64,000 nucleotides of DNA from Dictyophora rubrovolvata (lineage: Eukaryota > Basidiomycota > Agaricomycetes > Phallales > Phallaceae), in the NCBI GenBank assembly GCA_029959195.1, contig CP114117.1, positions 682,001-746,000 on the forward strand. The letters are read 5' to 3'. Below are positions 4,137-24,986 of the stretch, piece after piece; position 1 is the stretch's first letter, and each line of letters starts with the position of its first letter. The notes under the pieces were generated by a model. That model ran no database searches. It worked only from the letters and a program-made list of their open reading frames with translations, and was not told the DNA's origin. The position numbers were made by a program, and so were the translations under genes.

Positions 4137-5127
<991 letters not shown>

Positions 5128-5620: not shown

Positions 5621-5749
5621 ATGGCTATCTTCCATAATTCTCTAAACCTCATAACTCTCACTTTTCTCATACTTCTGGCACAAAGCACCAGTGCATTACC
5701 TCAACCCCCTCAACCGCAAGTTATCGGCGGCCCCGGTAACGGGGTCTAA
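5621..5749 (+). CDS. Small secreted peptide with C-terminal GGPG motif (42 aa)
   Basis: A single-exon frame of 42 codons, too short for most gene finders. Residues 1-25 form a strong signal peptide (hydrophobic LITLTFLILLAQSTSA). The predicted mature peptide is only about 17 residues: a Pro/Gln stretch (LPQPPQPQ) followed by VIGGPGNGV at the very C-terminus. The GGPG tail recurs in the genes at 20778, 22744, 24178 and 24801. That recurrence is the main argument that this short frame is real. There is no cysteine and no CaaX box. Function is unknown; a secreted signalling or surface peptide is an inference only. Confidence 0.6.
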   Translation: MAIFHNSLNLITLTFLILLAQSTSALPQPPQPQVIGGPGNGV

Positions 5750-6024
5750 ATGACAATCACAGCTCTTACGATGAGTTAGTTAAGCTTTGCTCTTGTTTGA
5801 CTAAAAATTTTACACCTTTTCTCAGTTTCCTCGACGGAGCCCCAGTCCATTGTAGTGTTATTTATTCTAAAATACATTTCTATGACTTGATAAATTTCCG
5901 ACGAAGCATGTAGCTCGAAGTGACGTCGATTTAATGAATTCGCAAAGCACAAATCACTTTGAAATATTGTAATTTATTACACCATACCAGGAAACCCACG
6001 AGCACCAAGATTAGTGCTCTTAAC

Positions 6025-7609
6025 TCATAAATGGGCAGTTCCAGCAATCAAAGCACCGCCGTCCACTATGACAAAATCCCCAGTAACATGAGCAGAAGCA
6101 GGACTAACCAAAAACAACGCTGATTTGGTGTGAGCCAAACAAGTAATGTTCATCCTTATTCAAATCTTACCAACCCCCGCCATATCTCTCGCATTCCCTA
6201 ATCGACCTAACCAAATAACTTCAAACTGAATAGGTTCAAAGAGTATAAACGTTATCTCACCCATCGGTTGACTCTTAACTACCGTATCGTGGTGATTCTT
6301 CAGACTCCAAGCAGTCATTTTAGATGGGAAGACACTAGAACAACATCCAAGTACATATTTAATGCAAGATCGTACTCGACATTTTGATGGTCAACTTACC
6401 CTGGACAAATGGCATTGACACTGTTAAATAGTTAAGAGGAAAAAGACTTGTTCGAAACAGCTTGTAACTTAACGTGATAAACCGGTGCGCAAGTGTCGTA
6501 GCCAAGTTCTTGGTGAGATGATTTACTAAGCCAACATTTAGTCTGCTCAAGACACTTGATACCAAAAAAATCCAAAATTTACCTGCAGCCTTGCTAGTAT
6601 GATCTATATGATATAGATGAGCAAACTAGTTGAGTACAGCACGTGGCACTTACAACTCCATAGCCCATTATTCTTCTCGGCTATGCTGCTTCCTCCGGCA
6701 TTCGTCTCAAAAGCGGCCACTGAAGAAATATTGATCACCCTTCCAGGATCGATATTTGTTGAATCCTTTGCCAAAATATCGGTTAATCTGATGATACCAT
6801 TAACTTCAGCTAATAGTAGCATTAAGAAAACGTACCCTTGGGTCACTATCCCGCGGTCGACTTTAATTTGAAGTTGTATTTAGAGAAATGACAGAACTCA
6901 CTGTAAAATATACTCTTGACATTCAACGACAGAAGTTTATCCCAGCCTTGTTTCTCAGGAAAGCTGTTTTCATGTGAGCCATGAAGAAGTTCCGGTAGCC
7001 GACAGACATGGTTAATACACACTCGTTATAGGGCGCTGCCCATGAAGCACCTGAATTATTCACTAGAATGTGGATCTTTCGCTCTTTCCTCTTGATTTCT
7101 TCAGCTACTTTATCACATCCCGCTTTCGACTAGGTGAAGATCTTTCAGTACCGGGTACAAAGGAGCATCGGCGATTTCGACTCGGAACTCAGCTTACACC
7201 AAGATCGCCAACAATGTAATGGCAACTTCCAGAGCCTTTCTTATTTAGAATATCACAAGCCTAGGAAAAACAATAAACATCAATTTCCAAACAGAAGCTG
7301 GTGCACTCACAGCTTTGAGCTGGGCCTCTTTTCTAGATACGATATAAACTTTGGCACTGTTCTGAACAAATGCCGATGCAATCATAAGACCAATTCCGGA
7401 TCCACCTCCCGTAACAACGGCTGTGTAAGAAAAAAATGATAGAAAACGAGGAATAATACACTCTTATGTTTTCCTTACCAATTTTCCCTTCGACGCCGAA
7501 TAGGGATGAGATTGTCACATCTGGTCAGACTCAAGTCAGACGTCATAATAAGAAACTTTTAAAAGAGTTTTGACATTGAAATGCACTCAAAGGTACCTGG
7601 AATATTCAT
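6025..7609 (-). CDS. Short-chain dehydrogenase/reductase (classical SDR)
   Basis: NAD(P)-dependent oxidoreductase of unknown substrate. The start is ATG at 7609 (MNIPG) and the stop is at 6025. About nine short introns interrupt it. The Rossmann nucleotide motif reads AVVTGGGSGIGLMIASAF (about 7.4 kb). The NNSGAS block follows, then the catalytic serine region VINISSVAAFETN. The YHTSK active-site motif is created across a splice junction near 6.6 kb. Next come NHLTKNLATTLAHRFITVNAICPG and the C-terminal GVALFLVSPASAHVTGDFV. The raw frames look broken, but every block joins in phase, so I call it intact. It resembles the fungal 3-oxoacyl-ACP-reductase-like SDR group. It is divergent from ALG2 with a 258 bp shared promoter region. 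Confidence 0.85.
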
Positions 7610-7867
7610 GGTGTGTATAAGAAAGATGCTACAAGGAAATGCCTGCAATGGCAATCAAGCATCATGATGTTGAAACTTGAAGCTCGGCTCGGCACCCTAT
7701 GGTAAGCTAGTGGAAGGCAAGTCTGATTATGTCAGACAAACGTCCGAGCATGCACTGTCACCGTGACTGCTTTGCGCGAACCACTCTTCGCTGTTGGATC
7801 GCACATAATTTCAATTTGCGTTTTCTCTGAGGAGTTTTTATTTGGGGTGGTAACCATTGATTGAGAA

Positions 7868-9717
7868 ATGAGGGTGGCCTTTCTTCACCCAGACTTGGGT
7901 ATCGGTGGGTCGGATTTCAGAGATAAACTTCTGGCGCTTTTCTAATAAAATAATTCTTTAAATAAGGTGGGGCAGAACGCTTGATTGTCGATGCCGCACT
8001 TGGTCTTCAAAGGCGGGGACATGAAGTTCATATATACACGTCTCACCACGATCCTAAACACTGTTTTGAAGAGACAAGAGACGGTATGTATCCTTCAAAG
8101 CTCCCATGACGCTCTGCTCAAGTTCCAAGGTCCAAGGCAGCTAATTTCATGATTACTAGGAACTTTGAAAGTCAATTACGTCGTTCCACCATTTCCGCGC
8201 TCAATACGTGGCAAAGGTCACATTGTGTTTGCACACCTGCGCCAACTACACCTTACCTTTCACCTACTTTACACCAAATCACAGATTAATAAAACATACC
8301 TAGTAGACGACTATGACGTCTTTTTCATTGATCAGCTATCCACAGCCATTCCTTTTCTGAGAAATCTGGGGAATAAACGCGTAGTTTTTTATGGTCACTT
8401 CCCAGACAAACTCCTTGCCGAAGGACCGTTTATTGAGAACGTCCCAAGAAGCAAGAAGCTCTCCCTTAAAACCTTATATCGTCTTCCAATGGATCTTTTG
8501 GAGGACTATACTACTCGTAAGTTCTACGGAGGTTCCGACCGCCTGCACTCCAAGTGGGTAGCTGAATAGGACTGACTCTACAGGAAAGACCGACGTCCTT
8601 TTGGTCAATTCCAAGTTTACTGCTCGTGTTTTCAGAACCTACATGCCCAATTTACGAAAAGCATCACGCGTTGTCTATCCCGGAATTAATATCGAAGCAT
8701 ATGACGAACCCTTGCCGGCACCGCTAATGTCGGAAAAAGCTGATTTACGAGAAGGTCGCTCTCTAGTTGGAGACGTATATTCGTGCGTAGCATTTCAACT
8801 ACTTAATTTCATAGGCTTAATTCTTAAAACATAGGTTCCGACCAACACTGGTGTCGCTCAATCGATTCGAGAAGAAGAAGAATGCGGTTTTAGCGATTCG
8901 AGGCTTTGCCTTGGTAACAAAGCAACTTCATAGGGGTGCAACCACAACGAACCGACTTGACCAAATGCGATTGGTTCTTGCGGGTACATGTCGTTGCTAT
9001 TTATCCAGGTGTCGCTTAATGTTTAATCCACATCCCACAGGCGGCTTTGACCCCAGACTGAAGGATAACATACAAACTCTCAAGATTCTCGTGGACGCAT
9101 GCGAGGAGAATAATTTGGGATATCGCATTACACCAGCTTCGGCTCTTGAGCCCATCAAAGACTTTGAACCAATGTTCCAAAACTCATCAAATACAGCACA
9201 TGAAGATCCGGACGTTGTGTTCTTACTCAACTTCTCCAGCCTTCAACGAAACTATTTGCTGAAATCTCCGAATACCTGCGCATTGTTATATACCCCCATG
9301 AACGAACACTTCGGTATCATTCCGGTGGAAGGCATGTTATCTGGACTACCTGTACTAGCGTGCGATAGCGGCGGTCCTGTCGAAAGCGTGCTGGATCCAA
9401 TGATTGCGGAAGACATTGAAGAAAAGGAAAGAACAGGATGGTTAAGACCACCAGATGCAGATGCATGGGCCAGTGCCATTATGGATATTCTCAATATGTC
9501 AGAAGAGGAAAGAATCTCACTGGGAAAACGCGCGGGTAAACGGGCTGTTACCATGTTCGGCTTACCAGCCATGACCGAGAACATTGAAAAAGCTTTACAG
9601 GAGACGATAAACCTTGGACCCGTTGGCTTACAGGGTATTTTTATTTATTGGCGTCATTTATTGATATTCTTGATTACTGCACTTGTCCCTGTCGTCATAC
9701 GGCGGGTTTTATTCTAA
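7868..9717 (+). CDS. ALG2: Alpha-1,3/1,6-mannosyltransferase ALG2 (GT4)
   Basis: Cytosol-facing ER glycosyltransferase that adds the second and third mannoses to the dolichol-linked precursor of N-glycans. ATG at 7868 ([14 protein letters not shown]) continues across an intron to [14 protein letters not shown]. Diagnostic blocks are [76 protein letters not shown] and the donor-binding [20 protein letters not shown]. The C-terminus carries a hydrophobic segment, as in the family, and ends at 9717. Several 45-70 bp introns are inferred. No disruption is seen. The ortholog assignment is firm. Confidence 0.93.
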
Positions 9718-9895
9718 TTTATTTCACTTTTCGGAGGAAGATATATAGTCAATAAAGCGTTCTAGGCCTAATGCATATTTAGCACCTGCATGTTGAGCCC
9801 ATGTTGAGTGGACTATATAAGCTTGCCGCAGTTTCCAAGGACTAATCAGTAACAGTCAAATCAGTTCCGAAGTGCACTGCTGTCGTTGCTACTGA

Positions 9896-10340
9896 ATGTT
9901 GACGTCGACCCAAGCCGGCCCCTCTCACAGGGTCTCTCTCTGGTTGGACCAAACTGGTCGCCGGGGAGAATTAATAATACCGCGACTCGACAGCCTTAAC
10001 AACACCGCCGACCTATCAAATCAAGACGTAAACGTAGTTTACAACACTTTCAGTACACCCGTTGTTATCGACTTGGCGGATGTGCTCACAGATATAAAGG
10101 TGTAAGATAGTTTAGCTTGCTAATTTGTTGCTAATATTAATCCTTGATGATGATGATGATTTACAGAATTTGGAAGTGGTCATTGGACCCAGATTTGCTC
10201 CGGTATGTTTTTGATTATATCTGACACTCAAATTCACGCCTCGGTAGAAACACTGAACACTATTCCTACTAGTGTAGACATGAGCTTTGCCCGTGCCATT
10301 ATTTGCCGTTCAACGCTTCGCTGCCAGTGGGTTGTAATTA
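9896..10340 (+). pseudogene. 3' fragment of the HsbA-like secreted family
   Basis: The last two intron positions and short exons of the family at 16968 and 43226 are recognisable: a GTAAGATAG-type donor, a TGATTTACAG acceptor, an exon beginning NLEVV, then a GTATGTTTTTGA donor. Signal peptide and first exons are missing, so it is a truncated copy. The same 3'-flank repeat as at the other copies follows it. Confidence 0.5.
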
Positions 10341-10374
10341 CTTAAAGGAATAGAGAACGGATTATTTTAGTATA

Positions 10375-10620
10375 TCGTCAGTGGGATTTTACAGTATACC
10401 ATAATTGGTATTCACACTCGACTAGTTTTCTTCTTTGCTCACAAATTAGTAGTTATCATCAATATCTATGCGTATTACATATTGACATTGTGATTACACG
10501 CTGAGTGACAACTTGGACGCCAAATCCGACCTACTGACTCGAAACTTGGATCCCGGCTATCCTGCACCGACTACAAGCATTAGAAAAAGGGGCAGACTTG
10601 CCATTATCAACAGCAGTGGG
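10375..10620 (+). repeat. 3'-flank repeat of the HsbA-like duplication unit
   Basis: The segment starting near ATTTTACAGTATACCATAA contains CACACTCGACTAGTTTTC and the block CCTACTGACTCGAAACTTGG. It recurs downstream of the other HsbA-like copies near 18.0 and 19.9 kb (+), and near 43.1, 44.8 and 48.6 kb (-). It marks the unit boundary. Confidence 0.7.
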
Positions 10621-11871
10621 GAGGGAATACGAACTTCGTGAGAGTGGCACTCGGCAAAGGAGTTCGGACTTCCATGCCCGTAGACGATGAAAACCCTTCA
10701 AAGGCGTCAAGTGATTTTATTTTTAGAAAGCTAGTTAACCGGCGACCCACCTATCATTCCGCCCGCCCCAAACCTAAGAGATATGGGCGGGATGAGCTGA
10801 AAATGCCTTAAGTAGAGGCGGGGTGGTAGCTCCCCACGCCAAACCCTCCAACGTCTCCACCCGCTGCTAGCTTCGAGACCAGATGCGTAGACGACAAAAC
10901 GAGTGGGCAGGCAGGTAACATTCAATCTGAACAGTCCTCCCGCCGCCGATGATTTAATCTGCACCATGCACAACTGCCATAGCTTAGATATTTCAAATTT
11001 ACTAATTTACTTATTTACACCAAAATCTATCTAATGTTTGATGGAATATGCCAGCATTAGGGTTTACAAACCTACCGTCACATCCAGCCCCCACCACCCA
11101 GCAAACCCGCCAAAGAGGAGCTGAAACCTAAAAATGAGCCATGTATGAGGGGGAGAGGGGAGAGGGGAGAGGAGAGGTTGCAGCGTCCACTCTAGCTAAA
11201 ACCGAGGTACATGAACAAAAAAAATGTTAAAAAGGTGAAAAAAATTTTCACTAGGCAGATGCTTACTATTGATCCATTGCCGGCCCTCATCCATACATAT
11301 CTATCCGAATGCTGCACATTTTCGCATCTACTAAAAGATGCAAACGCGGGGAGATGGGCGCAGTTGGGAAAGGAGGTAGTGATGGTCGAGAAAAGGTTTG
11401 GGCCGTTCGGCGCCTGTCGAACTTGGTCACGTGATGGAACTTTCCTCGGTTGCGCCTCTTGTACCATAGTCAACTAGTCGCCCCGCCCTGTCGGTTCCCG
11501 CCTCCCGCTTAATTTGGGCGCACATGGGCATCTGCATGCGCCTAAGGTGAAAAAAATAGCTATATACATGCTGCGTGATACTCGATTATATAATAGCTAT
11601 CTACGAGGAGCTCGGACTTACGAGTACCACGTATCTCATATAGACCCAGCAGTGGGGGCTGAAGCCGGCATATCTGTCCGCGGTCCCAGACCTGGACAAC
11701 TCTTCCACTTACCGATTCCGACCTACTGACTTGGATTCCGGCTATCTGCCGTTACTTACTCGAGTAATGGTAATGTCTTCCTGTTTATGGTAATTCCAAG
11801 TATACCGGGCCATATTTAAACAGCCTAAAGTGTTGTCTTCAATTAGTACTTTGCGCGATTGATTACTCATA
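10621..11871. other. Non-coding, repeat-rich stretch
   Basis: No gene is recognised. It holds GC-rich patches (10.74-10.97 kb), a G/A-rich tract at 11147-11177 built from GAGGGG-like units, and from about 11.56 to 11.87 kb a mosaic of duplication-unit pieces. One piece, CTCGATTATATAATAGC, also occurs near 44.6 kb. Another, TACTCGAGTAATG, belongs to the 3'-flank repeat. Confidence 0.5.
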
Positions 11872-12882
11872 ATGGCGGACCACCATCATCTATTTTTCTT
11901 TATACCAAAAACACTTCTTTTACCACCAATCCATTCCAAAATTCCTCCAAAAATAGCTCCAACAGGCCCACTTGGGCCGGCATCCACCACAAAAAGGGGG
12001 AAAGCAACCTCTGGGGCAATGAACGAGACAGCGAGGCCACAATCTGAACAAGCTGACGCGTCTGGCACAGCTAAGCGACCGAGTAGACCAACGGCGTCTA
12101 AAGGAATCGACATGTTTGTGTTCCCAGAATGGGAAAGCCTAAAACAAATGCAAGAGAATATGAAAGATGGCAATGATGCACTCGAGTACCTGAAGCATCA
12201 GTTGTACCTAGAAGGAACAATGGAGGTGAATCTAGAGAACTTAAGCTATGCGCTGATGCTTTTCTCTACCACGTCATCCTTGAGACTTGTACAAGAAGGC
12301 GCAAGAGCAGTGGCAATACTGCTAAAAGAGCTGAAAATTGTAGTTCAGAACGAACAGATAGAAGAAGCAATGAAAGTAACACTAACCCCAATAGCAGCAG
12401 AAATAGCAACAATGAAACAAGACCTCAAAATGATATAAGAATGCACTGAAAAAGGTGAAGTGAGGAGAAAACCGACATATGCCAATGCAGCAAAAGAAGG
12501 AAGAGAAGAACAACAAATGGCAAGTCTAGAGATCAAGAAGAGACAAATCCTCATAGACCAAGAACAAAGTACGTCAACCAACACCCTAATAACACTAATG
12601 GAAATCCAGCTGGTTGCCAAAGCCAATGAAGCAATAAAAATAGCAAAAATCAACCAAGATAAACAAGACTTCAAAATAATCAGCGCACGAAAACTCTGAA
12701 ACAGAGGACTGTTATTAGAAACTAATACCACTGCAACAGCTGACACCTTAAGGAAGCAAAAGGAAGCCTTCTGCAATGCCTTTGGACCAGCAGTCAAGAT
12801 AAAAGAAAGAACCTCCATGGTAAGAATTCCATTTGTACCAGTGATACATGACACCAGCAGCGAATGGGAACAACATCGAATT
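11872..12882 (+). mobile_element. Retroelement ORF1/gag-like relic, probably non-LTR (LINE) type
   Basis: The coding relic resembles the first ORF of basidiomycete non-LTR elements: a basic Pro/Thr-rich N-terminus, a helical region, the TYANAAK block, a RQILID block, an LVAKANEAI block, and a distal KERTSMVRIPFVPV block. No reverse transcriptase follows. It is an incomplete, broken copy (about two breaks), cut on the right by the first TGTCAGGG-ended element at 12883. The family assignment rests on remembered block order only. Confidence 0.5.
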
Positions 12883-13290
12883 TGTCAGGGTATGCTAGTG
12901 CCATCCCCTTCTTTTCCTCTGTTTATCTTCGGTTTTGGTCTATTTTATTCATTTCCATATTTCTCGCATTTTATCCCATCTCTTGCGTTTCCCTCTCCTT
13001 CCATATTCCCATTTTTCCCTTCAACGGGTGCTGAGCACCTGTTCTCATCAGAGCCATGGCCTAGGCCCCAGCTAAAAGTCTGGGACCGGCGCATATCCGC
13101 GCCCAGTCCATGAACCGAAGGCTGTGTATGGCCTTTGCCATTTTTTCATAGTATATGATTAGTAGCCCTAGAGGAGGGATCCCTAAGTTTGTTCTCTTGG
13201 GATCCCCTCCCTCTAGGTGAGTTAGTATTATTCCTAGAATATATTTTGCTTAGGATCCCCTCCCTCTAGTCTGAGAGAGTAGCCCTGACA
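12883..13290 (+). mobile_element. TGTCAGGG-ended element, copy 1 (408 bp, non-coding)
   Basis: Begins TGTCAGGGTATGCTAG and ends GAGTAGCCCTGACA, giving 8 bp terminal inverted repeats. The inside is pyrimidine-rich at the left and has nested GATCC-containing hairpins at the right (CCTAGAGGAGGGATCCC paired with GGATCCCCTCCCTCTAGG). It is closely similar to copies at 13323 and 14690. The internal 98-codon frame is a by-product. The CAGGG-type termini suggest a non-autonomous DNA transposon (MITE), but I cannot find a clean target-site duplication. Confidence 0.65.
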
Positions 13291-13322: not shown

Positions 13323-13729
13323 TGTCAGGGTATGCTAGCATCGTCCCCTTATTTTCCTTCATTTATCTTCGGTTCTGGTTTATCTTATTTATTTCCTTAT
13401 TTCTCGTATTTTATCCCATTTCCTGCATTCCCCCTTCCTTCTGTATTCCCTTCTTTCCCTCCAACAGGCGCTGAGCGCCCGTTCTCATCAGAGCCATGGC
13501 CTAGGCCCCAGCTAAAAGTCCGGGACTGGCGCGTATCCGTGCCCAGTCCATGAACTGAAGGCCGCGTATAGCCTTTGCCGTTTTTTCATAGTATATAGTT
13601 AGTAGCCCTAGAGGAGGGATCCCTAAGTTTGTTCTCTTAGGATCCCCTCCCTCTAGGTGAGTTAGTATCTTTCCCAAAATATATTTGCTTAGGATCCCCT
13701 CCCTCTAGTCTGAGTGAGTAGCCCTGACA
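13323..13729 (+). mobile_element. TGTCAGGG-ended element, copy 2 (407 bp)
   Basis: Same orientation and layout as copy 1 and separated from it by 32 bp. That spacer resembles part of the element interior (TTTTCATAGTATATAGTTAGTAG), which suggests insertion into, or recombination with, another copy. Termini are TGTCAGGG and CCCTGACA. Confidence 0.65.
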
Positions 13730-14689: not shown

Positions 14690-15095
14690 TGTCAGGGCTA
14701 CTCACTCAGACTAGAGGGAGGGGATCCTAAGAGATATATTTTGGGAAAGATACTAACTCACCTAGAGGGAGGGGATCCTAAGAGAACAAACTTAGGGATC
14801 CCTCCTCTAGGGCTACTAACTATATACTATGAAAAAATGGCAAAGGCCATACGCGGCCTTCAGTTCATGGACTGGGCGCGGATATGCGCCGGTCCCGGAC
14901 TTTTAGCTGGGGCCTAGGCCATGGCTCTGATGAGAACGGGCGCTCAGCGCCCATTGGAGGGAAAGAAGGGAATACAGAAGGAAGGGGGAATGCAGGAAAT
15001 GGGATAAAATACGAGAAATAAGGAAATAAATAAGATAAACCAGAACCGAAGATAAATGAAGGAAAATAAGGGGACGACGCTAGTGTACCCTGACA
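14690..15095 (-). mobile_element. TGTCAGGG-ended element, copy 3 (406 bp, inverted)
   Basis: Reverse complement of copies 1 and 2, with the same termini and the same internal GATCC hairpins. Together with copy 2 it forms an inverted pair around the 0.96 kb spacer 13730-14689. Confidence 0.65.
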
Positions 15096-16026
15096 GCGGT
15101 GAAGATAAGCACACAGCAAACAAGGAGAATGTTTCTTTGCCATTTATCTTTATTTTGGGAGATTAGTGCCTTGTGTACACTCGGTAAAAAGACTGATGGG
15201 ACCGGTGCAGGGGCATCCCAAATAAGAAGGAGAGTCTGTCACGCAAAAACAAAGAATAAATACAGAGTAGTGATAATTATGATGTAGCGATTATTACGTA
15301 CTTAGGGAATAAATTCGAGGCTGGATGAAAGCTGGATGAAAGTGTCATTGACTGACATTAGTGTTGCCCACGAATGGCTGGTTAACCATCCAGCCATTCG
15401 GCCGGCAGCCAATAAAACACAGCTCCACTCAGCCTACCGCCAAAGTCCTAGGCATAGGAACAGAAAATTAGAACATACCTAAATATATTGTGCAATTGCT
15501 TTACTTGAAATTTCATTGGAGCTCACTTAAAAAATTCTACAATAAACATTCCGTTGCCTGGCTCGGAGTTGTTCTGTGTTCTTTATCGGGTGTTGCTTGC
15601 ATCATATTGAGCGCTTGTGGGGCAGCGGCTCTACTCCCTTCACACTCCAACTCGAGCTCCCCCTTTGTAGAATAAAGCAGAGCTTTCCGGGGCTTGTGCT
15701 GAACCCAGGCTCTCAGAATTCATCATAAGCTTCTTAAACTATTTATGTACAGGAATCCAACATGAAAACCTTTCAAGACACATACAGCCTCCAGCTTTGC
15801 GTGACAGACTCTCCTTCTTATTTGGGATAACCCTGCACCGGTCCCATCAAATCTTACACACCCGATTGTCGAGTGTGCACAAGGCACTGTGAACCCCCCG
15901 AGTCTAATTAGACTTGGGCCCGTTTGGACCCGTTTGGACCCTGCCAGATCAGGCACGGGCGATTTTGCGACACGACTATAAATTCAACAAGCGATAGAGA
16001 TACGAGATATACAACCGGCTTTATGA
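15096..16026. other. Non-coding stretch containing an inverted-repeat pair
   Basis: No gene is recognised. It is dominated by the inverted repeat described at 15166-15887, with a perfect 11-bp hairpin inside. Confidence 0.45.
15166..15887. repeat. Inverted repeat pair with 552 bp spacer
   Basis: Arm 15166-15245 and arm 15798-15887 are reverse complements apart from small indels. The shared core reads GATGGGACCGGTGCAGGG, then AATAAGAAGGAGAGTCTGTC. The spacer includes a perfect hairpin at 15371-15400 (stem CGAATGGCTGG, 8-nt loop). This could be a foldback element or two facing copies of one repeat; no coding capacity is recognised. Confidence 0.6.
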
Positions 16027-16450
16027 GGCTTTATGCAGTGCCCGTCATCGGTCGCTGGTCAAATATGACCTGCACTATGTAATTGAAATGCTGTATCATC
16101 ATGCAGTCTTTCCATTGCACAACGTCGTGAACCAAAAACATGGTTGTTGTTTTGTAGACATAAATGGATGCATGGATGGATACAGCGCTCGAGATACTCT
16201 TCAGGCTTGCATGCCTGTACAATTAATGAAAAAAAAAATGAACATTCCATACCGTAACATTTAACATCCCGCATTATATTCCGCATCATATTCCACACCG
16301 CAATATTGAACACCACTGCATCTTTGACCATTCCACACCGCACCCGGTCAGGTTCACGCCGAAGTTTCAGGGTTTTTGAGTATAAGAACAAGAACATTCT
16401 CAATACATTATCCTCATTCGTTCTTGTGGATCCTCCGCTATCTTTATTTT
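16027..16450 (+). repeat. Orphan copy of the HsbA-like upstream region
   Basis: Matches the roughly 400 bp region upstream of the gene at 16968: GTCAAATATGACC, CGTCGTGAACCAAAAACAT, GATGGATACAGCGCTC, and the CCCGGTCAGGTTCACGCCGAA block. No secreted-protein exon follows it here, so it is a promoter fragment left by the duplications. Confidence 0.6.
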
Positions 16451-16815
16451 GCGCTGTACCCAAGACCTTATGATAACGATTATTTAAAAAAATAATTAGT
16501 TAAATTAATGCTAAAGAATCCTCTCTTTTATGGGCCCCTGACATGGTATCATCAGACCGTTGAAACTCGGCAGTGGAAACCGGCTGGTGCGTTAGGTACA
16601 CTATGCTGGAGAGTGTCCGTCACTGGATCAACGGTCACCGGTCAAATATGACCGTCTATGCTGGGTCATCATGCAATCCCTGTCTTTTCGTTGCACACTG
16701 TCGTGAACCAAAAACATGATTGTTGTTTTTCTTGATTTTATAGACATGGATGGATACAGCGCTCAAGACATTCCGAGTTCCTTAGACTTGCATGCCTTTA
16801 CAATGAACATTCGCA

Positions 16816-16900
16816 CCGCAATTTTGAACATCACCGCATCTTTGACCATTTCACACCGCACCCGGTCAGGTTCACGCCGAAATCCCAGGGTTTTTGCATA
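16816..16900 (+). promoter_or_regulatory. Conserved proximal promoter of the HsbA-like gene
   Basis: Contains CACACCGCACCCGGTCAGG, then TTCACGCCGAAATCCCAGG, then a TTTTTGCATACAAAAG block in the TATA position. The block is repeated upstream of the copies at 19.3, 44.2, 46.0 and 49.8 kb. Copies at 19317-19323 and 44235-44241 have an intact TATAAAA at this point, whereas here it reads TACAAAA. Confidence 0.5.
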
Positions 16901-16967
16901 CAAAAGTCGGATGGGTTGGATACAAATACATCTTTCATACATCATCCTCGTTTAGTTTCTTTCGCAC

Positions 16968-17943
16968 ATGCACCCTCTCAGAGCTCCTTTTGCGCTCCTC
17001 GCAATGACTTTCGTCACCACTGTTTTGGCAACTCCCATCAATGTTCACGTTCGGCGAGACAACGTCACTGCAGACCTTGTTACTGCAATGGCTTTAGTGG
17101 ATGTGGCCATCGTAAGTCACACTTACGCCTCTATTCTGCTCCATACACATGAACCAAATTCCTTCTTCCTTCTTCCACTCTCCGTCCGGAAAAGGTAATT
17201 GCCAACAACGATATTTCAAATTTATTTCCAAACCCAACTGACCCAACTGACTCAAAAGTAAGTCATTGACAAAGCCAGATTGTTATATGCCGTCTAAAAG
17301 TTTTTTCATTGAGATTCAAACTGCAACAAATGATATCTCAACCGCCGCAGAGAGACTAGATGACGTAAGAAACGCCCTCAATTCTCATCCAAAAATTTTA
17401 TGTAATTGAAACGCAAAGGTGACTCTGGCCACGCGTGTAAGAGAGCTTGGCTTTTAATGGGGAAAACAATCTGACATCAATATCAACAAAGGCAGTTGAT
17501 CCCTTCAATAACGATGAAAGCGAAACCTTCATAAATAACTTTGTCGCACCCCTCTTCAGCAGCATTGAAGCCACCGCCATGCTGTCAGCGCAACAGGCAT
17601 CCGATATTTCTGTCGCTCTAAGTGCTAACGATACTAAGAACTTCGCGACATCGATCTTCCAAATGTCAGAAGCCATAGGTGTAAGATGGTTTAGCTCGGT
17701 AACAGTAATCCTTAATGATAATGATTTACAGCTTTTGGTAAACACCATGAGGCTCGTGCTTTCTTCGGTATGTTTTTGATTATATGTATCTGAGGAACGC
17801 TAAACACTCACGTTCATGTCTCTTTCCCCCTAAAGGATACGGTAGATATGTTGAACGCTGCTATTGTGGGTCCAGAAAGTGACTTGAACCGAGTTCTTAA
17901 TCTCGAAGCCTTTGCAAGTTGCGAGTGCTCTCATGATCGTTGA
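16968..17943 (+). CDS. Small secreted HsbA-like protein, copy A (intact)
   Basis: Six short exons join in frame to roughly 190 residues. The signal peptide is MHPLRAPFALLAMTFVTTVLA. The mature part begins around TPINVHVRRDNVTADL, with potential N-glycosylation at DNVT. Later exons read VIANNDISN, IQTATNDISTAAERLDD, then the long helical exon from AVDPFNNDESE to FQMSEAIG, a short LLVNTM exon, and the last exon ending CECSHDR with TGA at 17941-17943. Length, signal peptide and alternating helical pattern resemble the hydrophobic surface-binding protein A / cell-wall galactomannoprotein group. I assign that family with moderate confidence. Regulatory and 3' flanks are shared with the other copies in the window. 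Confidence 0.6.
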
Positions 17944-17989
17944 AAGTTGTGAGCGCTCTTGATCTCGCAGCCTTTCAACCCGCTGGCGC

Positions 17990-18530
17990 TGGGTCGTGTC
18001 AATGGGTTTTACAATATATCATAATTGGTATTCACACTCGACTAGTTTTCCTCCTAGCTCACTTATTATTATTATCAATATTTACATATTGTGATTACGC
18101 ACTGAGTGACAACTTGCACACCAAATCCGGCCTACTGACTGGAAACTTGGATTCCGGCTATCCTGGATCGACAGCAAGCATTACTCGAGTAGTGTCTTCC
18201 TGTTTATGGTAATTCCCTAAAGCGTCGACGGTCTTCAATCTGCACTTTGCACGATCAGTGTCCTTAGATTGGTTCGAGCTTGGACTCTGCCGGCGCCTCC
18301 AATCGTGCCACTGCGTGTTAAATTTTGTTCCTTCATGTGTATATATATGTGGATTCGTGCTAGGGTCCAGTGATTTTTTTTTTTCAGCCTCATGATGGAA
18401 TATTTACAAAAAAATTTAGTATGAGCTAATCAGATGCTAATTAGTAACTAGACCGGGTACGTCATGACTCGGAGCGGGATTTCAGTATGTCAGTCAGCCA
18501 GAAATGCCAGAGTCCGGACCAGTATATCAA
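17990..18530 (+). repeat. 3'-flank repeat between HsbA-like copy A and ABC relic
   Basis: Contains ATATATCATAATTGGTATTC, TGGATTCCGGCTATCCTGG, ATTACTCGAGTA and the segment with GTCTTCAATCTGCACTTTGC. Closely matches the reverse complement of 48.1-48.64 kb. Confidence 0.65.
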
Positions 18531-18654
18531 TATTAGATAACGAAATGATTCGCACCGTGATCTGAGACCGCCACCTGCATTACCCTCAGTCGACTAATAG
18601 AGCAGGGATTTCTGCGAGCCAGCTTTCTTCTCGTAGCATCGGACATGTAGTTGA

Positions 18655-19073
18655 TGCTGCTCCTTCATGCGAGAATTATGGCATCGTCAATGATTCGACT
18701 TGCGCATGTCCGATTGGCTTTGGAGGTCCCACTTGCGATTTGCTGGGATGCGGTGGAATGATTTTTCAAGGTTCCCAAGGCAACGGCCGCTCGCTCAACC
18801 CCAAAAAAATGTCCCAAGTAATTTTTCAAGTTGTGCTTGTGTAAACGGTTGGACTGGTCCTGGTTGTAATGGTAAGAAATAGTTTTCCGATCACTGAGGG
18901 TTTTGTCATTAGTTGCCATTGACCGTCACCAAAGCATGCACAACAGCAAATGCTTGTCAAGTTGGTCAATACAGCAACTGCCCAGCGTAATTAATATATC
19001 CCAAAACCTGGTCATGACCTGTCATCAACCTCGCGTTTTTGCTGCGAGTCAAACGAGCTGTGATACTATGTAT
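18655..19073 (+). pseudogene. Exon relic of the EGF-bearing ABC transporter
   Basis: Encodes pieces of the N-terminal ectodomain of the gene at 36984-40937: CENYG, then STCACPIGFGGPTCDLLGCG, then SSCACVNGWTGPGCN, followed by the next exon (TACQVG-like region). Frame is lost between blocks, and neither the ATP-binding domain nor the membrane part is present. It is a 5' fragment carried within the duplication unit. Confidence 0.7.
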
Positions 19074-19398
19074 GTAGGTATGGTCATTTCCGTCCTTGTT
19101 CCAATGTCATTGTCTGATCTTCAATTTCAAGTATCTCGACCATTGTAAGTCCTCCATTCAACCATTTATCCATTCACTTTCATATTGTACATTTACGGCC
19201 TTATTATTAGTGTCCTTACCATATCGAACATTCCCCGTTATATTTCCGCCATTATATTCCGTATCGCAATACTGAACATCACCGCATCTCCTCGCCGAAA
19301 TCCCAGGCTTTTTGTGTATAAAAGTCGGAACATTTTGGATGGGTTGGATACACAATACATCTTTCATACATTATCCTCGTTATATTTATTTCGCACGT

Positions 19399-19925
19399 GC
19401 ACCCTCTCAGAGCTCCTTTTGCACTCCTCGCAACGACTTTCGTCACCACTGTTTTGGCGTTGAACTCCCCTCAATGGTCCCGCCCGTGTTCCTTCTCGCA
19501 ACATTACGGACCTGTTTAATAGTATGAATTTAGCGTATCAGAATGTCGTAAGTCCCGCTTACGCCCCTATTCTTCTCCATACACATGGACTACTCTCCCG
19601 GATAAGTTGATTGTCAACACCGAGATTATGGCTCTTGCTACTACCTTACATGACACGGCGCCAATAGTAAGTTATTAACAAAACTAGGTTGTTATATGCT
19701 GTCTAAAAGTTTTATTAAGCTTCAGAAAATAATAAATGATCTTTCAACCGCCGGAGACAACGTGAATCAGGTAAGAAACGCCCCCTTATTCGCATCCAAA
19801 AAAATCTTTTTCACCCAGTTGAAACGCATAGACGGCTTCCCTCGTACAGGTAAGAGAATTTGGGTTTTAAAAGGGAGAAGAAACTGACATTAATACCAAC
19901 AAAGGCAGCTGGTACCTTCCCTGAG
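19399..19925 (+). pseudogene. HsbA-like secreted protein, copy B (decayed)
   Basis: Retains the promoter with a good TATAAAA at 19317-19323 and an exon 1 similar to HPLRAPFALLATTFVTTVLA. The initiator ATG reads GTG (CACGTGCACCCTC instead of CACATGCACCCTC), exon 1 shifts frame after the signal peptide, and the copy stops after the exon that begins with the GCAGCTGGTACC block. The downstream helical exon is missing. Judged non-functional. Confidence 0.65.
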
Positions 19926-19944
19926 GACTCGCTTATCATTTATT

Positions 19945-20350
19945 ATGAATATTTATGCTTCAATATATCAACAACATTATGATTACTTGGGACGCAGAAC
20001 AGTGGATGGAACAATTTGAAATACTTACTCGAGTAATTTCTCCAAGTATACAGAGACATATATTTTAACGGCCTGGGGCGTCGACGGACTTCAATTCGTA
20101 TTTTGCACAATCAGTGTCCTTAAATTGGTTTGAGCCTGGACTTTGTCTCCCGTCGTGCCCCTTGTTCCTTCATATATGTGGATCCGTCAGTGACCCTGGC
20201 CTCATGATGGAATATTTCAAAAAAAATAATTTAGTATGGGCAGTACTTTCTCGGTGCCAATTAAATACTAACTAGGCCGGGTCCATGAGCGGGATTTCTG
20301 TACGTCAACCAGCCAGAAATACTAGAGTTCGGACCCGCCTTGACGCAAAA
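19945..20350 (+). repeat. 3'-flank repeat after copy B
   Basis: Carries TACTCGAGTAATTTC, the GTCGACGGACTTCAATT block, and CCTCATGATGGAATATTT, all shared with the flank at 18.0-18.5 kb. Confidence 0.6.
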
Positions 20351-20777
20351 CGCTCGCGCCGACGAAATTACAAGGCATCATTTGACGAAACTGGCTACAT
20401 GTGAATGTTTAATCAAAGTATGAATTCAATTTGGCGCTTTTCTACTTTTCAATATTAAATTTCCATCGAATGAAATCACAATGCAGCGCAGGCACATGTG
20501 TATTTGCCTCAAAAGACAAGAACGAAATAAGTATCGTTTTAGCCGCTGCCAGTGGTGCTCGAAGTAAACATGGTGACAACTTTTGTGGCCGGTGATATCA
20601 TGTATGTCATACATGTACTGCTCTTCGCACGCGACATTCAAGAGGAAGGGATGATATCTGTCTATGGAGGTATTTAGACTCGAATGACCAAGACCGTTAG
20701 ACATTCCAACCACTTGGCACTCAGATAGCTCCTTCTAATCGTTGAAGTGACACTCTCCTTCTGTTTATTGCATCAGA
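20351..20777. other. Intergenic, nothing recognised
   Basis: This 427 bp stretch lies between the end of the duplication arm and the peptide gene at 20778. It presumably includes the promoter of that gene. No conserved block is seen. Confidence 0.35.
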
Positions 20778-20963
20778 ATGAAAATATCCTTGCTTTTCTT
20801 CTTCTTTTGGATAGAGTTTCTAGTCCACTTGATGCCACTAGAAAAACCCACGTCCGTTACGACATCCATTGGACATATCAACCAGGCTACAAGGCTTCCT
20901 TTGATTAAAGAGATATTTTCCGGAGCCGCAGTGGGTGGACCCGGAGGATCTAATGAGTTTTAA
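20778..20963 (+). CDS. Small secreted peptide with C-terminal GGPG motif (61 aa)
   Basis: Single exon. A very hydrophobic N-terminus (MKISLLFFFFWIEFLVHLMP) looks like a signal peptide. The middle is Ser/Thr-rich with no cysteine, and the tail is AAVGGPGGSNEF followed by TAA. It shares only the tail and overall layout with the other members, so it is a diverged paralogue. Lack of cysteines and of a CaaX box argues against a mating pheromone or a knottin. Confidence 0.55.
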   Translation: MKISLLFFFFWIEFLVHLMPLEKPTSVTTSIGHINQATRLPLIKEIFSGAAVGGPGGSNEF

Positions 20964-21444
20964 CCTTGGTTTGATCCGATCTTTTGAATCAACCCTACTT
21001 GCAGATAGCATAACATGTCTATAGAATGGATGGGTCTAATCCAGCCAGTAGTTTGCAAAACAATTGTTACATACCTTCTCAACACACTTCTGATTTATGG
21101 GGTCCGGCTAATAGTAAAACGATCGGAAGGAAGCTTAGAGTGTCAGCTGAAACCTCAATAGTGATATATCCCAGTTTAGTTTGTTCACCGTTGAGTCGTG
21201 TCTCAGAGTGAATTCTCAAGTAACCGAACATGTCGATTGGTATTTGATTAGATATAATATGCATTACTTTTCAACTGGTCATTGGCGTCCTAGAATCGCG
21301 CGGAGTAAATAATAACGACAAAGGATTTCAAGGCCTCGACGTTGACTCTGACAATGCGTCTCGTACGAAATTTTTTGCCGGACCATTGAATCTTCTCATA
21401 GCACCCAAGTTCACTGAAACTGATCAGGAACACGGCCTTGCAAG
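20964..21444. other. Intergenic, nothing recognised
   Basis: This 481 bp stretch runs between the peptide gene and the 3' end of the BUD21-like gene. Short open frames on both strands have no similarity I can name. Confidence 0.35.
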
Positions 21445-21998
21445 TCAATGACAAGAAGACATACCAGGCATCCTGTTCCAATCTCTTGGTGGTCCGCGAC
21501 CACCGCCCCCGACCTTCGAGTCGCCCTTTGAAGAAATTTTCTGTCTACCGGCCGGCCCGCTCCTTTTCGTGAGTGACGATGTTGTTGCAACGGTTACGTC
21601 TTGGTTATGTAGTTGCAGCTGCGTCTTCATGAACTTGGCAATATGATGAGACTGGTATCCTTCTCCTACTGGAGAAGCTGAAGAAAGGACTTTTATAGCA
21701 CGGCCCCTTTGATCATAACAAGGTTAGTAGGATCAAATCTTTGCCAAACAAGCACATTTACCCAACGATCAGCTCCTTTGCTCGATTCGCCCTTCTTTTC
21801 TTCTTCTTCTTGTCAGGTTTCGATCTGTTCTCAGACGATTCACTCGACTGATTTATTGTCGATTTACTAATAGCGGCCGCAGCAAATATATGGTCCGGAA
21901 GTTGCTTTGTTGTGATATCTGGATCTGCAGCGACTTGGTATTCATTGGTGATCCCGCCCCATTCTTCTTCTACTTGTTTATCATCTTCCATTCTCTCC

Positions 21999-22060
<62 letters not shown>

Positions 22061-22408
22061 CTCGCCTGCATCTCCGTCCACCACGTCATCTTCACTACTT
22101 TCCTCAGCAGCTTGTCTCATTGCACGTTCCATTCTCTCCTCTGCCTCAGTCATTCGTACCCGTTCTTTACTCTTCAGCTTCTTTGTGCGATCATCGGTTT
22201 CTAATCTTTTCGCCTTTTCCTCTTTGAGAAGCCTATCTCTCTCCCGGTTTTCATTCTTCTTTTTCGTTCGTTGACTGCTTTCGTGAAGTCTGATTGTTTT
22301 CGCTTTTGCTTCTAAGATCTTCTTGGAGGATGACAATGAAACAGCCTCAGGACCGTCAGAATCAGAGTCAGAGTTTGTTCGAACGCCAAAAGGTCGTTTT
22401 GGAGGCAT
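21445..22408 (-). CDS. BUD21: BUD21/UTP16-like acidic nucleolar protein
   Basis: Likely small-subunit processome component acting with U3 snoRNA in 18S rRNA maturation. ATG at 22408 (MPPKRPFGVRTNSDSDSD). The order is a Ser-rich start, a long Lys/Glu/Arg charged coiled region, an uninterrupted aspartate run encoded by the microsatellite at 22001-22060, the block TTKQLPDHIFAAAAISK, and a basic KKKKKRRANRAKELIVG stretch. An intron near 21.70-21.76 kb joins this to a second exon with RAIKVLSSASP, AKFMKTQLQ and TKRSGPAGR. The LPDHIF block, the following basic segment and the RSGPAGR tail fit Bud21. The exact C-terminus is uncertain. Confidence 0.65.
22001..22060. repeat. GTCATC hexanucleotide microsatellite
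   Basis: Ten GTCATC units encoding an aspartate run on the minus strand within the BUD21-like gene. The run is alternating GAT and GAC codons and is likely length-variable between strains. Confidence 0.9.
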
Positions 22409-22650
22409 TGAGAACAGCCTTGAATCGAGGTTAGTCGTGGGCTTAGTAAGCTATCCGCCAACGCCTTTTGGTTCGTGTTGAAATAAACGGGATGTTTCAA
22501 TCAAAACCGCGCAAGCCATGTGTAATCTATTATTGTATCTTGTCTGGCTGGTATCGAGTCAGTGAGCAGTGTTTGAATCAAAGATCTGATAGGCACCCGC
22601 CCCTCACTATAGATGAACTTTGTTCCGGTTGACACATTTCAGATCCGAAT

Positions 22651-22657
22651 TATAAAA
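22651..22657 (+). promoter_or_regulatory. TATA box upstream of GGPG peptide gene
   Basis: TATAAAA located 93 bp before the ATG at 22744, a usual distance for fungal TATA promoters. Confidence 0.4.
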
Positions 22658-22743
22658 AACATCGAGAAGATAGAAATTTGACTGCCAGACAAGTATATAG
22701 ACAAGGCCTTCCTCAGACAGTATCACACACCGTCTTCATTCAA

Positions 22744-22923
22744 ATGACCACACCTAAACTATCTACAACTTTTCTTCTGCTTGGCATTCTCCTCTGTCTC
22801 ATCGGCCAGTCTTTAGGGGCGAAAATTGCTGCAGAGCATGCAGAACATGATTTATCTCATTCTCCCATCGAGGCATTTCCAATACCTCCAATCGTGGGAG
22901 GACCAGGAGGAGTAAATGGTTGA
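22744..22923 (+). CDS. Small secreted peptide with C-terminal GGPG motif (59 aa)
   Basis: I chose the second in-frame ATG (22744) because it opens directly into a signal peptide (TTFLLLGILLCLIGQSLGA). The ATG-less upstream frame from 22678 has none. The mature part is about 34 residues, acidic and His-containing (AEHAEHDLSHSP), then Pro-rich (IEAFPIPP), ending IVGGPGGVNG and TGA. The signal peptide resembles those of the genes at 24178 and 24801 (FLLLGILLCL versus LLFGILLLIL), supporting common descent. The gene is divergent from the BUD21-like gene, with 335 bp between starts. Function unknown. Confidence 0.65.
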   Translation: MTTPKLSTTFLLLGILLCLIGQSLGAKIAAEHAEHDLSHSPIEAFPIPPIVGGPGGVNG

Positions 22924-23442
22924 CGCGTTGACGGGCGGCCTGTCTAGCAAGTCCCTATGGTAATTGATGTAAGTTGGTATCTAATGACCAGTAGATTGCT
23001 GACACAGATGGTTTTTGAAGCCTTTCCAGTACTTACTTCAATTGTACGACTGTCGTTGTAGTAATTCAATACGCTTCACCTTCTATTGGCATTTTCAATC
23101 GACGCCATGACGCAAGTGCCAGACGTCTTATGAACAAAGAAATCGAATGAACCCCTTCATATAACTATTAATATAACAATACAGTTCGCCGATTATTCCT
23201 TCAGACCCCAACAGGAAAATCATGTGAAACAATAAGAACTTGAATGAATATTTCCATTCGCTACCACTCGGGTTTGCCAATGTCTAATACGACACGCACA
23301 GCTACCGGGAATACAGAAGAACCTGCGCCCATTTGGACAAGAGTTGGACGTGCGAAACAGCTCCTATGTTCCTGATCTGTAGGCGTGAAAAGTTTTAAAA
23401 TGAAAGCTTCGTTGACAACTAAGATCCTTAACGTCATATTAA

Positions 23443-23639
23443 ATGACTATACTCCCGAAACCAACAACGTTTCTCCTATTCGGAATTCTTTCATTCTCTC
23501 CAAATCTTCCGAAGCAGCTATCATTGGACCCTATGATCATGCTCCTGACTACACCACGCCAAGCCAGCCGCTCGTTAGGACTGACGGAACCTCATTTCAA
23601 CCCGGTGTAGTGGGACCCGTAGGCGGACCAAATACTTGA
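23443..23639 (+). pseudogene. Decayed GGPG-type peptide gene
   Basis: Aligned with the gene at 24178, the ancestral ATG is at 23443 and opens MTILPKPTTFLLFGILS. After that the signal-peptide frame and the mature frame (SEAAIIGPYDHAPDY) are no longer the same, so one indel separates them. The tail reads VVGPVGGPNT instead of VGGPGPN. An 85-codon frame through the mature part starts further upstream but lacks a signal peptide. I judge the copy non-functional. Confidence 0.6.
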
Positions 23640-23810
23640 CAACATACTCCAAGTCGTTCAGAAATAACGGATGTGGGTGTTTCGTCGTCGATTTGATAAA
23701 ATAGTAAACCTGAAGTACTCATTGTTGCAGAGCAAAGCGTGGTCTTGAACTTGAAGTGTGGGGTTCGATAACGTTTATGGTCATCACGACATTCCGAGTA
23801 TATACATTAC

Positions 23811-23925
23811 GAACGACAATGAATGACGGGTCCAGTTGATCAATGAGTTTTCAAGACAAAAGGATCCTTTTGGAAAAGACGGCTCAGATCTTCCAGAAGC
23901 ACCCTGACAGGTTCGGACGCTACCT
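23811..23925 (+). pseudogene. Fossil of the REV1 5' end
   Basis: ACGAACGACAATGAATGAC, then TTTTGGAAAAGACGG-TCAGAT, then CAGGTTCGGAC. This follows the real REV1 start at 25301-25400 base for base with small indels, so it is a duplicated piece out of frame. The 81-codon frame starting at 23843 is a by-product. Confidence 0.7.
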
Positions 23926-24177
23926 TCATATGACTGATTATGATTATTTGATCACGGATTCCTTCAGACCAAACAGGAAGGCTTACCATATGAATGGCCA
24001 TCTCCACTGGCTGCCATCGAAAGCTGTCCAAGACGTACGTCGATGCCGCCGGGAATATAGGAACCTATACACAGACAATCTGAATTGAACGTGTGAGAAA
24101 CCTTCTATTTTCCTATTCCGTAGCCATAGACGTGAAAGTTTAAAAGCAGGCCACAATCAAGATCTTTCACGTCGAAA

Positions 24178-24366
24178 ATGACCTTGCTAACGAAACCAAC
24201 GTCTCTCTTATTCGGGATTCTTCTTCTGATTCTCGCCAAATACTCCGGAGCAGCTATCGTTGGACCCTATGATAATGCTCCTTACTATTCCACGACAAGT
24301 CAATCGTCTGCCAGTGTTGCTGCGACACCAATTAAAGTAGGAGGACCCGGACCGAATGGTCGATGA
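24178..24366 (+). CDS. Small secreted peptide with C-terminal GGPG motif (62 aa)
   Basis: Signal peptide MTLLTKPTSLLFGILLLILA with cleavage expected near YSGA. The mature chain is about 37 residues and opens AIVGPYDNAPYYSTTSQ, then Ser/Ala-rich, ending IKVGGPGPNGR and TGA. It is closest to the gene at 24801: both have the PYDxAxxY block and the VGGPGPN tail. A GTGAAAGTTTAAAAGC element lies about 40 bp before the ATG and is repeated before the neighbouring copies. There are no cysteines. The second member of the tandem array; function unknown. Confidence 0.7.
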   Translation: MTLLTKPTSLLFGILLLILAKYSGAAIVGPYDNAPYYSTTSQSSASVAATPIKVGGPGPNGR

Positions 24367-24800
24367 CTATGGTATGCTTTTAGTTGATCGAAAAACTGTG
24401 TGACTGACGTTAACATGGTTGCAAAGAGTTTGTAGTCTCGAAGTGTGGTCCAACTTAAACAGTGCCTGATAGTATGGCTTTATAACGCTGTCACTTCAAC
24501 TGTAATAATATGTTTAAATTTCTGATAAAAAACGTCAGTATGGTCATAACGGATAATAAATGTAGTGCACTTGAGCCTTTGTGAATAGGAAAGGCCCAAT
24601 CCTTATTCGATAGGAAATGAACGCCAGTGCCATTTGAATATGCACTTGTGGGCACTACCGGAATATAGAAAACCTGTATGCAGAATTTGAATAGAGTTGG
24701 ACGTGTGAGAATACCTTATGTTCCATTTGTCTTAGCCATAAGCGTGAAAAGCTTTAAAGCAGGTTTAGGTTGAAACCGAGATCTTTCACGTCACAGACAA

Positions 24801-24986
24801 ATGGCTTCACTGATGAAACCAACGCTTTTCTTATTCGGAATTCTTCTCATTCTCGTCAAATCTTCCAGAGCAGACATCGCTGAACCCTACGACGATGCTT
24901 CCTGCTATACTGCGACACCGAGTCAATCGTTCGCTAGCGCAAATGGGACACCAGTTCAAGTAGGAGGGCCCGGACCAAACAGTTGA
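24801..24986 (+). CDS. Small secreted peptide with C-terminal GGPG motif (61 aa)
   Basis: Signal peptide MASLMKPTLFLFGILLILV with cleavage expected near SSRA. The mature part opens DIAEPYDDASCYTATPSQ (one cysteine), carries a possible N-glycosylation site NGT, and ends VQVGGPGPNS with TGA. Nucleotide similarity to the gene at 24178 extends into both flanks. Substitutions leave the reading frame, signal peptide and tail intact, which suggests selection on the protein. The REV1 start lies 0.32 kb downstream. Confidence 0.7.
   Translation: MASLMKPTLFLFGILLILVKSSRADIAEPYDDASCYTATPSQSFASANGTPVQVGGPGPNS

What the first reader, a model, noticed from the sequence alone, without database searches (positions are those of the whole stretch)
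5621..24986. A family of tiny secreted peptides with a conserved C-terminal GGPG tail
Five intact single-exon genes (5621, 20778, 22744, 24178, 24801) encode 42-62 residues: a signal peptide, a short variable region, and an end of the form [VI]GGPG with Asn within 0-2 residues (VIGGPGNGV, VGGPGGSNEF, VGGPGGVNG, VGGPGPNGR, VGGPGPNS). The GGPG codons differ between copies (GGC GGC CCC GGT, GGT GGA CCC GGA, GGA GGA CCA GGA, GGA GGG CCC GGA), as expected for selection on the peptide rather than recent copying. The tail is terminal in every case, as in peptide hormones or processed signals. There is no CaaX box, no cysteine framework and no dibasic repeat. I know of no described fungal class with this form, and the genes are short enough to be missed by annotation.
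Basis: partly seen in the sequence, partly recalled or inferred. Interest (0 to 1): 0.88.

Follow-up and report, generated by a model that had tools for sequence, protein, structure and literature searches.

The report
Tiny secreted peptides ending in GGPG
This stretch of what looks like a fungal genome carries five tiny genes for probably secreted peptides that all end in the same Gly-Gly-Pro-Gly signature, an apparently undescribed set that may act as signals between cells.

Summary
Five intact single-exon ORFs (42, 61, 59, 62, 61 aa) sit where stated and hold 5 of the 6 GGPG words in six frames of the 64 kb. Random sequence gives 0.025 such ORFs per window. In a motif-blind test 5 of 39 hydrophobic-start ORFs share the terminal word; 300 simulations never exceeded 3. 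The five rank 2, 3, 4, 9, 18 of 288 short ORFs for N-terminal hydrophobicity.

They are not five independent genes: 24178, 24801 and a frame-broken copy at 23443 form a tandem array, and 22744 is a distant relative; 5621 and 20778 share little beyond the tail. The pair 24178/24801 shows pN/pS 0.51 (0.29-0.91).

Best reading: small secretory precursors with the C-terminal tail as conserved core, working most like the Cryptococcus pro-peptide Qsp1, whose printed 11-mer has a GAPGG core. That likeness is suggestive for two tails and absent for three. No fungal genome could be searched, so conservation elsewhere is untested, and function is inferred.

The parts
5621..5749 (+). peptide gene 1, 42 aa, hydrophobic N-terminus, tail VIGGPGNGV (tail 5720-5746)
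   Evidence: hydrophobicity rank 9 of 288; no DNA similarity of CDS or 5' flank to the other copies, 3' flank at best z 2.8 to 24178 (2 of 200 shuffles)
20778..20963 (+). peptide gene 2, 61 aa, tail VGGPGGSNEF (tail 20931-20960); weakest signal peptide of the five
   Evidence: rank 18 of 288; CDS similarity marginal: z 3.3 to 24178 (2 of 200 shuffles, in another register) and z 2.4 to 22744 (3 of 200)
22744..22923 (+). peptide gene 3, 59 aa, tail VGGPGGVNG (tail 22894-22920); TATATAG at 22694-22700 before the ATG
   Evidence: rank 3 of 288; diverged relative of 24801 (z 5.3, 0 of 200 shuffles)
23443..23639 (+). broken copy: signal-peptide part in one frame, the rest in another; tail region reads VGPVGGPNT, without GGPG
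   Evidence: z 25.0 to 24178 and 20.2 to 24801
24178..24366 (+). peptide gene 4, 62 aa, tail VGGPGPNGR (tail 24337-24363)
   Evidence: rank 4 of 288; paralogue of 24801, z 27.9
24801..24986 (+). peptide gene 5, 61 aa, tail VGGPGPNS (tail 24960-24983)
   Evidence: rank 2 of 288; pN/pS 0.51 to 24178
23154..25215 (+). tandem array carrying the copies 23443, 24178 and 24801 with flanking sequence
   Evidence: self-blastn 23154-24583 to 23923-25215, 61% over 1480 columns; 23302-23642 to 24655-25002, 69% over 359
23781..23927 (+). duplicated 5' end of the neighbouring REV1 gene, left inside the array
   Evidence: 69% over 148 columns to 25271-25409; IMS and REV1_C domains downstream; that 25309 is the REV1 start is inferred

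Best explanation
A family of small secreted peptides. Each gene encodes a signal peptide, a short fast-changing spacer (nearly absent in 5621) and a conserved C-terminal core, [V/I]-G-G-P-G with Asn close behind. After secretion the precursor, or a C-terminal piece of about 9-12 residues cut from it outside the cell, would act as a signal of the fungus. The closest working model is Qsp1: secreted pro-peptide, cutting outside the cell, uptake by an oligopeptide transporter (or, alternatively, a surface receptor). Shown here: the ORFs, the terminal tail above chance, hydrophobic N-termini, frame-preserving change in one pair, loss of the GGPG word in the broken copy. Inferred: secretion, cleavage, release of a short core, signalling. 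Not known: receptor, protease, importer, trigger.
For: GGPG tails and hydrophobic N-termini fall on the same ORFs far above chance. Apart from M1, the invariant columns of the five-way alignment are G-G-P-G and N, while the middle is variable. Between 24178 and 24801 the two indels inside the shared frame are both of 3 nt (a third gap of 10 nt lies between the last codon and the stop of 24178, past the stop of 24801), against 6 of 40 flank indels divisible by 3 (end gaps and loose outer flanks are in that 40, so a rough yardstick); pS 0.37, pN 0.19, Fisher p 0.017. The copy with a broken frame is the one without GGPG. Qsp1 precedent in print: secreted pro-peptide, matured outside by serine protease Pqp1, imported by Opt1; 11-mer with GAPGG core, and the inactive control differs by one Gly to Ala in that core. 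The tail of 20778 has the layout of Qsp1; its score of 26 is reached by 532 of 20,000 shuffles of Qsp1 and by 0 of 318 other ORF ends; 22744 scores 25, reached by 899 of 20,000 and 0 of 318.
Against: Likeness to Qsp1 is mostly composition: the scores of 5621, 24178 and 24801 are reached by 6471, 7934 and 6633 of 20,000 shuffles of Qsp1 (and by 2 of 318 other ORF ends), and the sum over all five by 1168 of 20,000; Qsp1 was chosen after seeing the tails. No transcript, peptide or other fungal genome was available. Synonymous codon choice does not separate the five from background ORFs (percentiles 8-67% of 256). CDS identity of 24178/24801 (76%) is lower than that of the upstream flank (85%) and close to the downstream flank (74%), so constraint on most of the protein is weak. 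20778 aligns to 24178 in a register that puts its GGPG opposite the VGP near the signal cleavage site, not the tail. A 190-aa antisense ORF overlaps the start of 5621.
Confidence: 0.43

Rival explanations
1. The tail is a recognition (follower) sequence and the variable middle is the product: a ribosomal peptide natural product or antimicrobial in which an enzyme reads the GGPG end and releases or modifies the upstream core.
For: The middle varies in length and sequence while the end is fixed; dN of the middle of 24178/24801 is 0.28 against 0.19 in the signal-peptide part. A possible methyltransferase (weak: Methyltransf_25, 17.1 bits against a cut-off of 27, 29838-30077) lies beyond REV1, and a cytochrome P450 at 62971-63243, 38 kb away.
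Against: 5621 has almost no middle (LPQPPQPQ after a plausible cleavage site). The two enzyme candidates are not next to the peptide genes, and no other modifying enzyme was recognised in 40 Pfam queries (39 of the 209 segments plus one sub-segment). Only 24801 has a Cys in the middle.
Confidence: 0.17
2. Secreted effectors or host-directed mimics of plant peptide hormones with Gly/Pro-rich ends (PIP, CEP, IDA types, recalled).
For: Small, cysteine-poor, duplicated, fast-evolving; Gly/Pro-rich terminal motifs are typical of plant peptide hormones (recalled).
Against: No similarity test against plant hormones was run; the fungus and any host are unknown.
Confidence: 0.15
3. Cell-surface or matrix mini-proteins: the mature peptides are structural, the GGPG end being a flexible turn or protease-resistant end, with no signalling.
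For: Short, Ser/Thr-rich middle parts in 24178 and 24801.
Against: A structural role does not explain why the motif is terminal and single in all five copies.
Confidence: 0.12
4. Only 22744, 24178 and 24801 (with broken 23443) are a gene family; 5621 and 20778 are chance or unrelated ORFs.
For: No DNA similarity of the 5621 CDS to any copy (z -0.8 to 0.8) and only marginal similarity for 20778.
Against: One such ORF is expected in only 0.025 windows, and both also have hydrophobic N-termini (ranks 9 and 18 of 288).
Confidence: 0.13

Closest known systems
Qsp1 (QSP1) of Cryptococcus neoformans, a basidiomycete quorum-sensing peptide
   Same: Small secreted pro-peptide; 11-residue active peptide with an F-G-A-P-G-G core in which one Gly to Ala change gives the inactive control (passages seen)
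   Different: Core is GAPGG, not GGPG, and ends in PW; treated as one peptide in the passages seen (one review writes QSP1-4), whereas here a multi-copy set; counterparts of Pqp1 and Opt1 not testable; likeness no better than shuffles for three of five tails; place of the core in proQsp1 not checked
KEX2-processed repeat proteins (KEPs), incl. ascomycete alpha-type pheromones
   Same: Secreted precursors that yield short peptides; widespread in fungi, also in Agaricomycetes (abstracts seen)
   Different: In the survey KEPs had to have at least three repeated motifs between KR/RR/KK sites; here one core, no dibasic sites by eye
Basidiomycete lipopeptide mating pheromones (recalled)
   Same: Short precursors in small clusters, easily missed by annotation (recalled)
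   Different: Those end in a CaaX box and lack a classical signal peptide (recalled); here no CaaX and a hydrophobic N-terminus
[quoted passage not shown]
   Same: Small, secreted, often unannotated (PMC10949477, passages seen)
   Different: No sequence comparison was possible; terminal GGPG not mentioned in the passages seen

Membership tests
Qsp1-type imported quorum-sensing peptide | small precursor with an export signal and no CaaX | tested here: met
   hydrophobic N-terminus ranks 2, 3, 4, 9, 18 of 288; tails carry no CaaX; secretion itself not tested
Qsp1-type imported quorum-sensing peptide | mature core similar to the printed 11-mer | tested here: inconclusive
   20778 and 22744 reached by 532 and 899 of 20,000 shuffles; the other three by 6471-7934; sum by 1168
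Qsp1-type imported quorum-sensing peptide | cutting outside the cell by a Pqp1-like protease and import by an Opt1-like transporter | not testable with these tools
   host genome not held; no peptidase or oligopeptide transporter family among the 40 Pfam queries of this window
KEX2-processed repeat protein | three or more repeated cores between dibasic sites | tested here: not met
   one GGPG per ORF; no KR/RR/KK in the five sequences by eye; criterion from PMC6339444 methods section
basidiomycete lipopeptide pheromone | C-terminal CaaX box (recalled) | tested here: not met
   ORFs end in NGV, NEF, VNG, NGR, PNS
any Pfam-A family | profile match at or above the curated cut-off | tested here: not met
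   0 of 5 proteins; one match far below cut-off (PF21898 to 22744, 9.6 against 27 bits)

The most novel reading that the evidence does not exclude
A multi-gene peptide-signalling system of mushroom-type basidiomycetes that shares descent or mechanism with Cryptococcus Qsp1: a [V/I/F]-G-[A/G]-P-G core at the end of secreted precursors, diversified by duplication so that different tails (GSNEF, GVNG, PNGR, PNS, NGV) carry different messages.
Probability: 0.22. Interest if true: 0.85.

Novelty: new variant of a known kind. Interest (0 to 1): 0.6.

Why it matters
To my knowledge, mushroom-forming fungi have few characterised secreted peptide signals apart from lipid-modified mating pheromones and KEX2-cut repeats. 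A set of genes with a recognisable end gives a search string that can be run on every sequenced basidiomycete, and short synthetic peptides that can be tested directly. If it proves related to Qsp1, a signal known from Cryptococcus would become a wider basidiomycete mode of signalling. The ORFs are short enough to be missed by gene prediction.

Tried and rejected
Relatives: viral-contig scan with 24178, 0 relatives among 173 pattern matches; genome-contig scan with 24801, 0 among 397. Both collections are viral or prokaryotic, so these negatives say nothing about fungi. The metagenome collection was capped at 0 and not asked. Pfam and PDB (one protein, 24801) gave nothing. tblastn of the peptides on the window: no further copy in the part of the output shown.

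Codon-usage scoring did not help: overall score percentiles 70-93% of 256 background ORFs, synonymous-only 8-67%. The sigma-70 promoter scan is for bacteria and was set aside. tRNA scan: 0. Structure prediction was not run. No signal-peptide predictor was at hand.

Literature: ten searches, seen as listings with titles and abstract starts. 'GGPG' with 'fungal' and 'secreted peptide': 0 papers. 'GGPG' with 'basidiomycete': 1, a bacterial glucosidase. 'VGGPG': 39, by title mostly HIV work, none on fungal peptides. Longer tail strings: 0. Qsp1-related: 56, of which 40 listed. 'Qsp1' with 'Agaric': 5, none on mushroom peptides by title or abstract start. Secreted peptide and transporter terms: 1, on Gigaspora. 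Searches (19 papers; 9; 13) gave background only. Homer 2016 and Lee 2007, the primary Qsp1 papers (recalled), are not held.

Considered and rejected: different GGPG codons as proof of independent origin; KEP and CaaX pheromone membership.

Full report
What was checked. The window belongs to no genome held by the tools, so no other part of this genome and no other fungal genome could be searched. Coding frames for REV1, a P-type ATPase, a Ras-family GTPase, an RRM protein and a cytochrome P450, several of them spread over more than one frame as in spliced genes, point to a eukaryote; that it is a mushroom-type basidiomycete was not tested.

The five ORFs. A six-frame scan of the 64 kb finds six GGPG words; five are the tails of these ORFs, the sixth is inside a proline-rich ORF at 36580. 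Third-order Markov windows give 0.025 ORFs of the form M...GGPG(0-6)* on average, at most 1 in 200 windows. Without the hydrophobicity filter (311 ORFs) the simulated maximum reached 5 once in 300. Ranked by N-terminal hydrophobicity among 288 short ORFs, the five are at 2, 3, 4, 9 and 18. Tail and hydrophobic start were scored separately and fall on the same ORFs.

Family structure. Shuffle-tested local DNA alignments, 45 comparisons in all, show that 24178, 24801 and a copy at 23443 are close paralogues in CDS and 5' flank (3' flank clear only for 24178/24801); 22744 is a distant relative in the CDS (z 5.3 to 24801, 4.0 to 23443); 20778 is marginal (z 3.3 to 24178, 2 of 200 shuffles, in a register that does not match tail to tail; z 2.4 to 22744, 3 of 200); 5621 shows none in CDS or 5' flank and at best z 2.8 (2 of 200) in a 3' flank. 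Self-comparison shows a tandem array, 23154-24583 matching 23923-25215, that also carries a copy of the 5' end of the downstream REV1 gene (REV1 by IMS and REV1_C). So there are three lines not shown to be related except by the tail: 5621, 20778, and 22744 with the array.

Coding evidence. Between 24178 and 24801 the two indels inside the shared frame are both of 3 nt; a third gap, of 10 nt, falls between the last codon and the stop of 24178, past the stop of 24801. Of 40 flank indels 6 are divisible by 3 (end gaps and loose outer flanks included). Synonymous change exceeds non-synonymous change per site: 18.0 differences on 48.3 sites against 25.0 on 131.7, pN/pS 0.51, bootstrap 0.29-0.91, Fisher p 0.017; dN/dS 0.39 by NG86 and 0.58 by YN00 (from the values). 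The tail VGGPGPN is identical in protein with synonymous changes in three of its seven codons. The copy at 23443 has a 4-nt gap in the signal-peptide part against 24178 and reads VGPVGGPNT at the end: the copy with a broken frame is the one that lacks the GGPG word. Against: CDS identity (76%) is not above flank identity (85% upstream, 74% downstream) by any useful margin, and synonymous codon choice does not separate these ORFs from background. The proteins change fast outside the tail.

What it works like. In the alignment of the five, the invariant columns are M1, G-G-P-G and N. The common plan is signal peptide, variable spacer, fixed terminal core; in 5621 the spacer is nearly gone (LPQPPQPQ before VIGGPGNGV). 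That is the plan of a peptide released or read from its C-terminus. Among fungal systems found in print the nearest working model is Qsp1 of Cryptococcus neoformans: secreted as a pro-peptide, matured outside by the serine protease Pqp1, imported by Opt1, acting inside (PMC7537855, passages seen; PMC6571750, passages seen). PMC5959073 (passages seen) prints the 11-mer, with a GAPGG core, and an inactive version that differs by one Gly to Ala in that core; PMC5959062 (passages seen) prints the same 11-mer. Scored against the tails, Qsp1 matches 20778 and 22744 better than most of its own shuffles (reached by 532 and 899 of 20,000) and better than all of 318 other ORF ends; the other three tails do no better than shuffles (6471-7934 of 20,000), and the sum over five is reached in 1168 of 20,000. 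I therefore claim likeness of working, not membership.

What it is not. Not a KEP: one core, no dibasic sites by eye, against the three-repeat criterion (PMC6339444, abstract and one methods section seen). Not a CaaX pheromone. No Pfam match at cut-off for any of the five. A modified ribosomal peptide is not excluded: a weak methyltransferase match and a P450 lie in the window, neither beside the peptide genes.

Verdict. A real and probably undescribed set of small, probably secreted peptides; absence from print rests in an open-access library only. The signalling role is the best inference (0.43). The decisive test is a search of fungal genomes, which could not be run here.

Noticed in passing
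37305-44173 (-), 45348-49829 (-), 16106-20288 (+): Several diverged, inverted, apparently partial copies of what looks like one ABC transporter gene with a signal peptide, EGF-like and ABC/ABC2 domains (Adp1-like layout, name recalled). Pfam: EGF_Teneurin (23.7 bits, just under its cut-off of 24.3), ABC_tran and ABC2_membrane on the 37-41 kb copy; DNA pieces of 46-838 columns 74-98% identical between copies.
   Followed up: partly
23781-23927 and 25271-25409: The 5' end of REV1 is duplicated into the peptide-gene array, so that a peptide gene and the REV1 start were probably copied together.
   Followed up: partly
29402-30077 (-): Possible methyltransferase gene next to REV1: weak Methyltransf_25 match, 17.1 bits against a cut-off of 27; no match for 29402-29758.
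   Followed up: partly
12817-13113 (+), 13332-13553 (+), 14865-15143 (-): Three similar ORFs rich in Phe, Pro and Ser, two direct and one inverted, apparently a local repeat.
   Followed up: no
5098-5670 (-): A 190-aa antisense ORF overlaps the first 50 bases of the 5621 gene; no Pfam match.
   Followed up: partly
52054-55170 (-): Single open frame of 1039 codons with a CBM_21 module, the type found in glycogen-targeting phosphatase subunits (function recalled).
   Followed up: no
36022-36825 (+): RRM protein with a proline-rich part that holds the only non-terminal GGPG of the window.
   Followed up: partly
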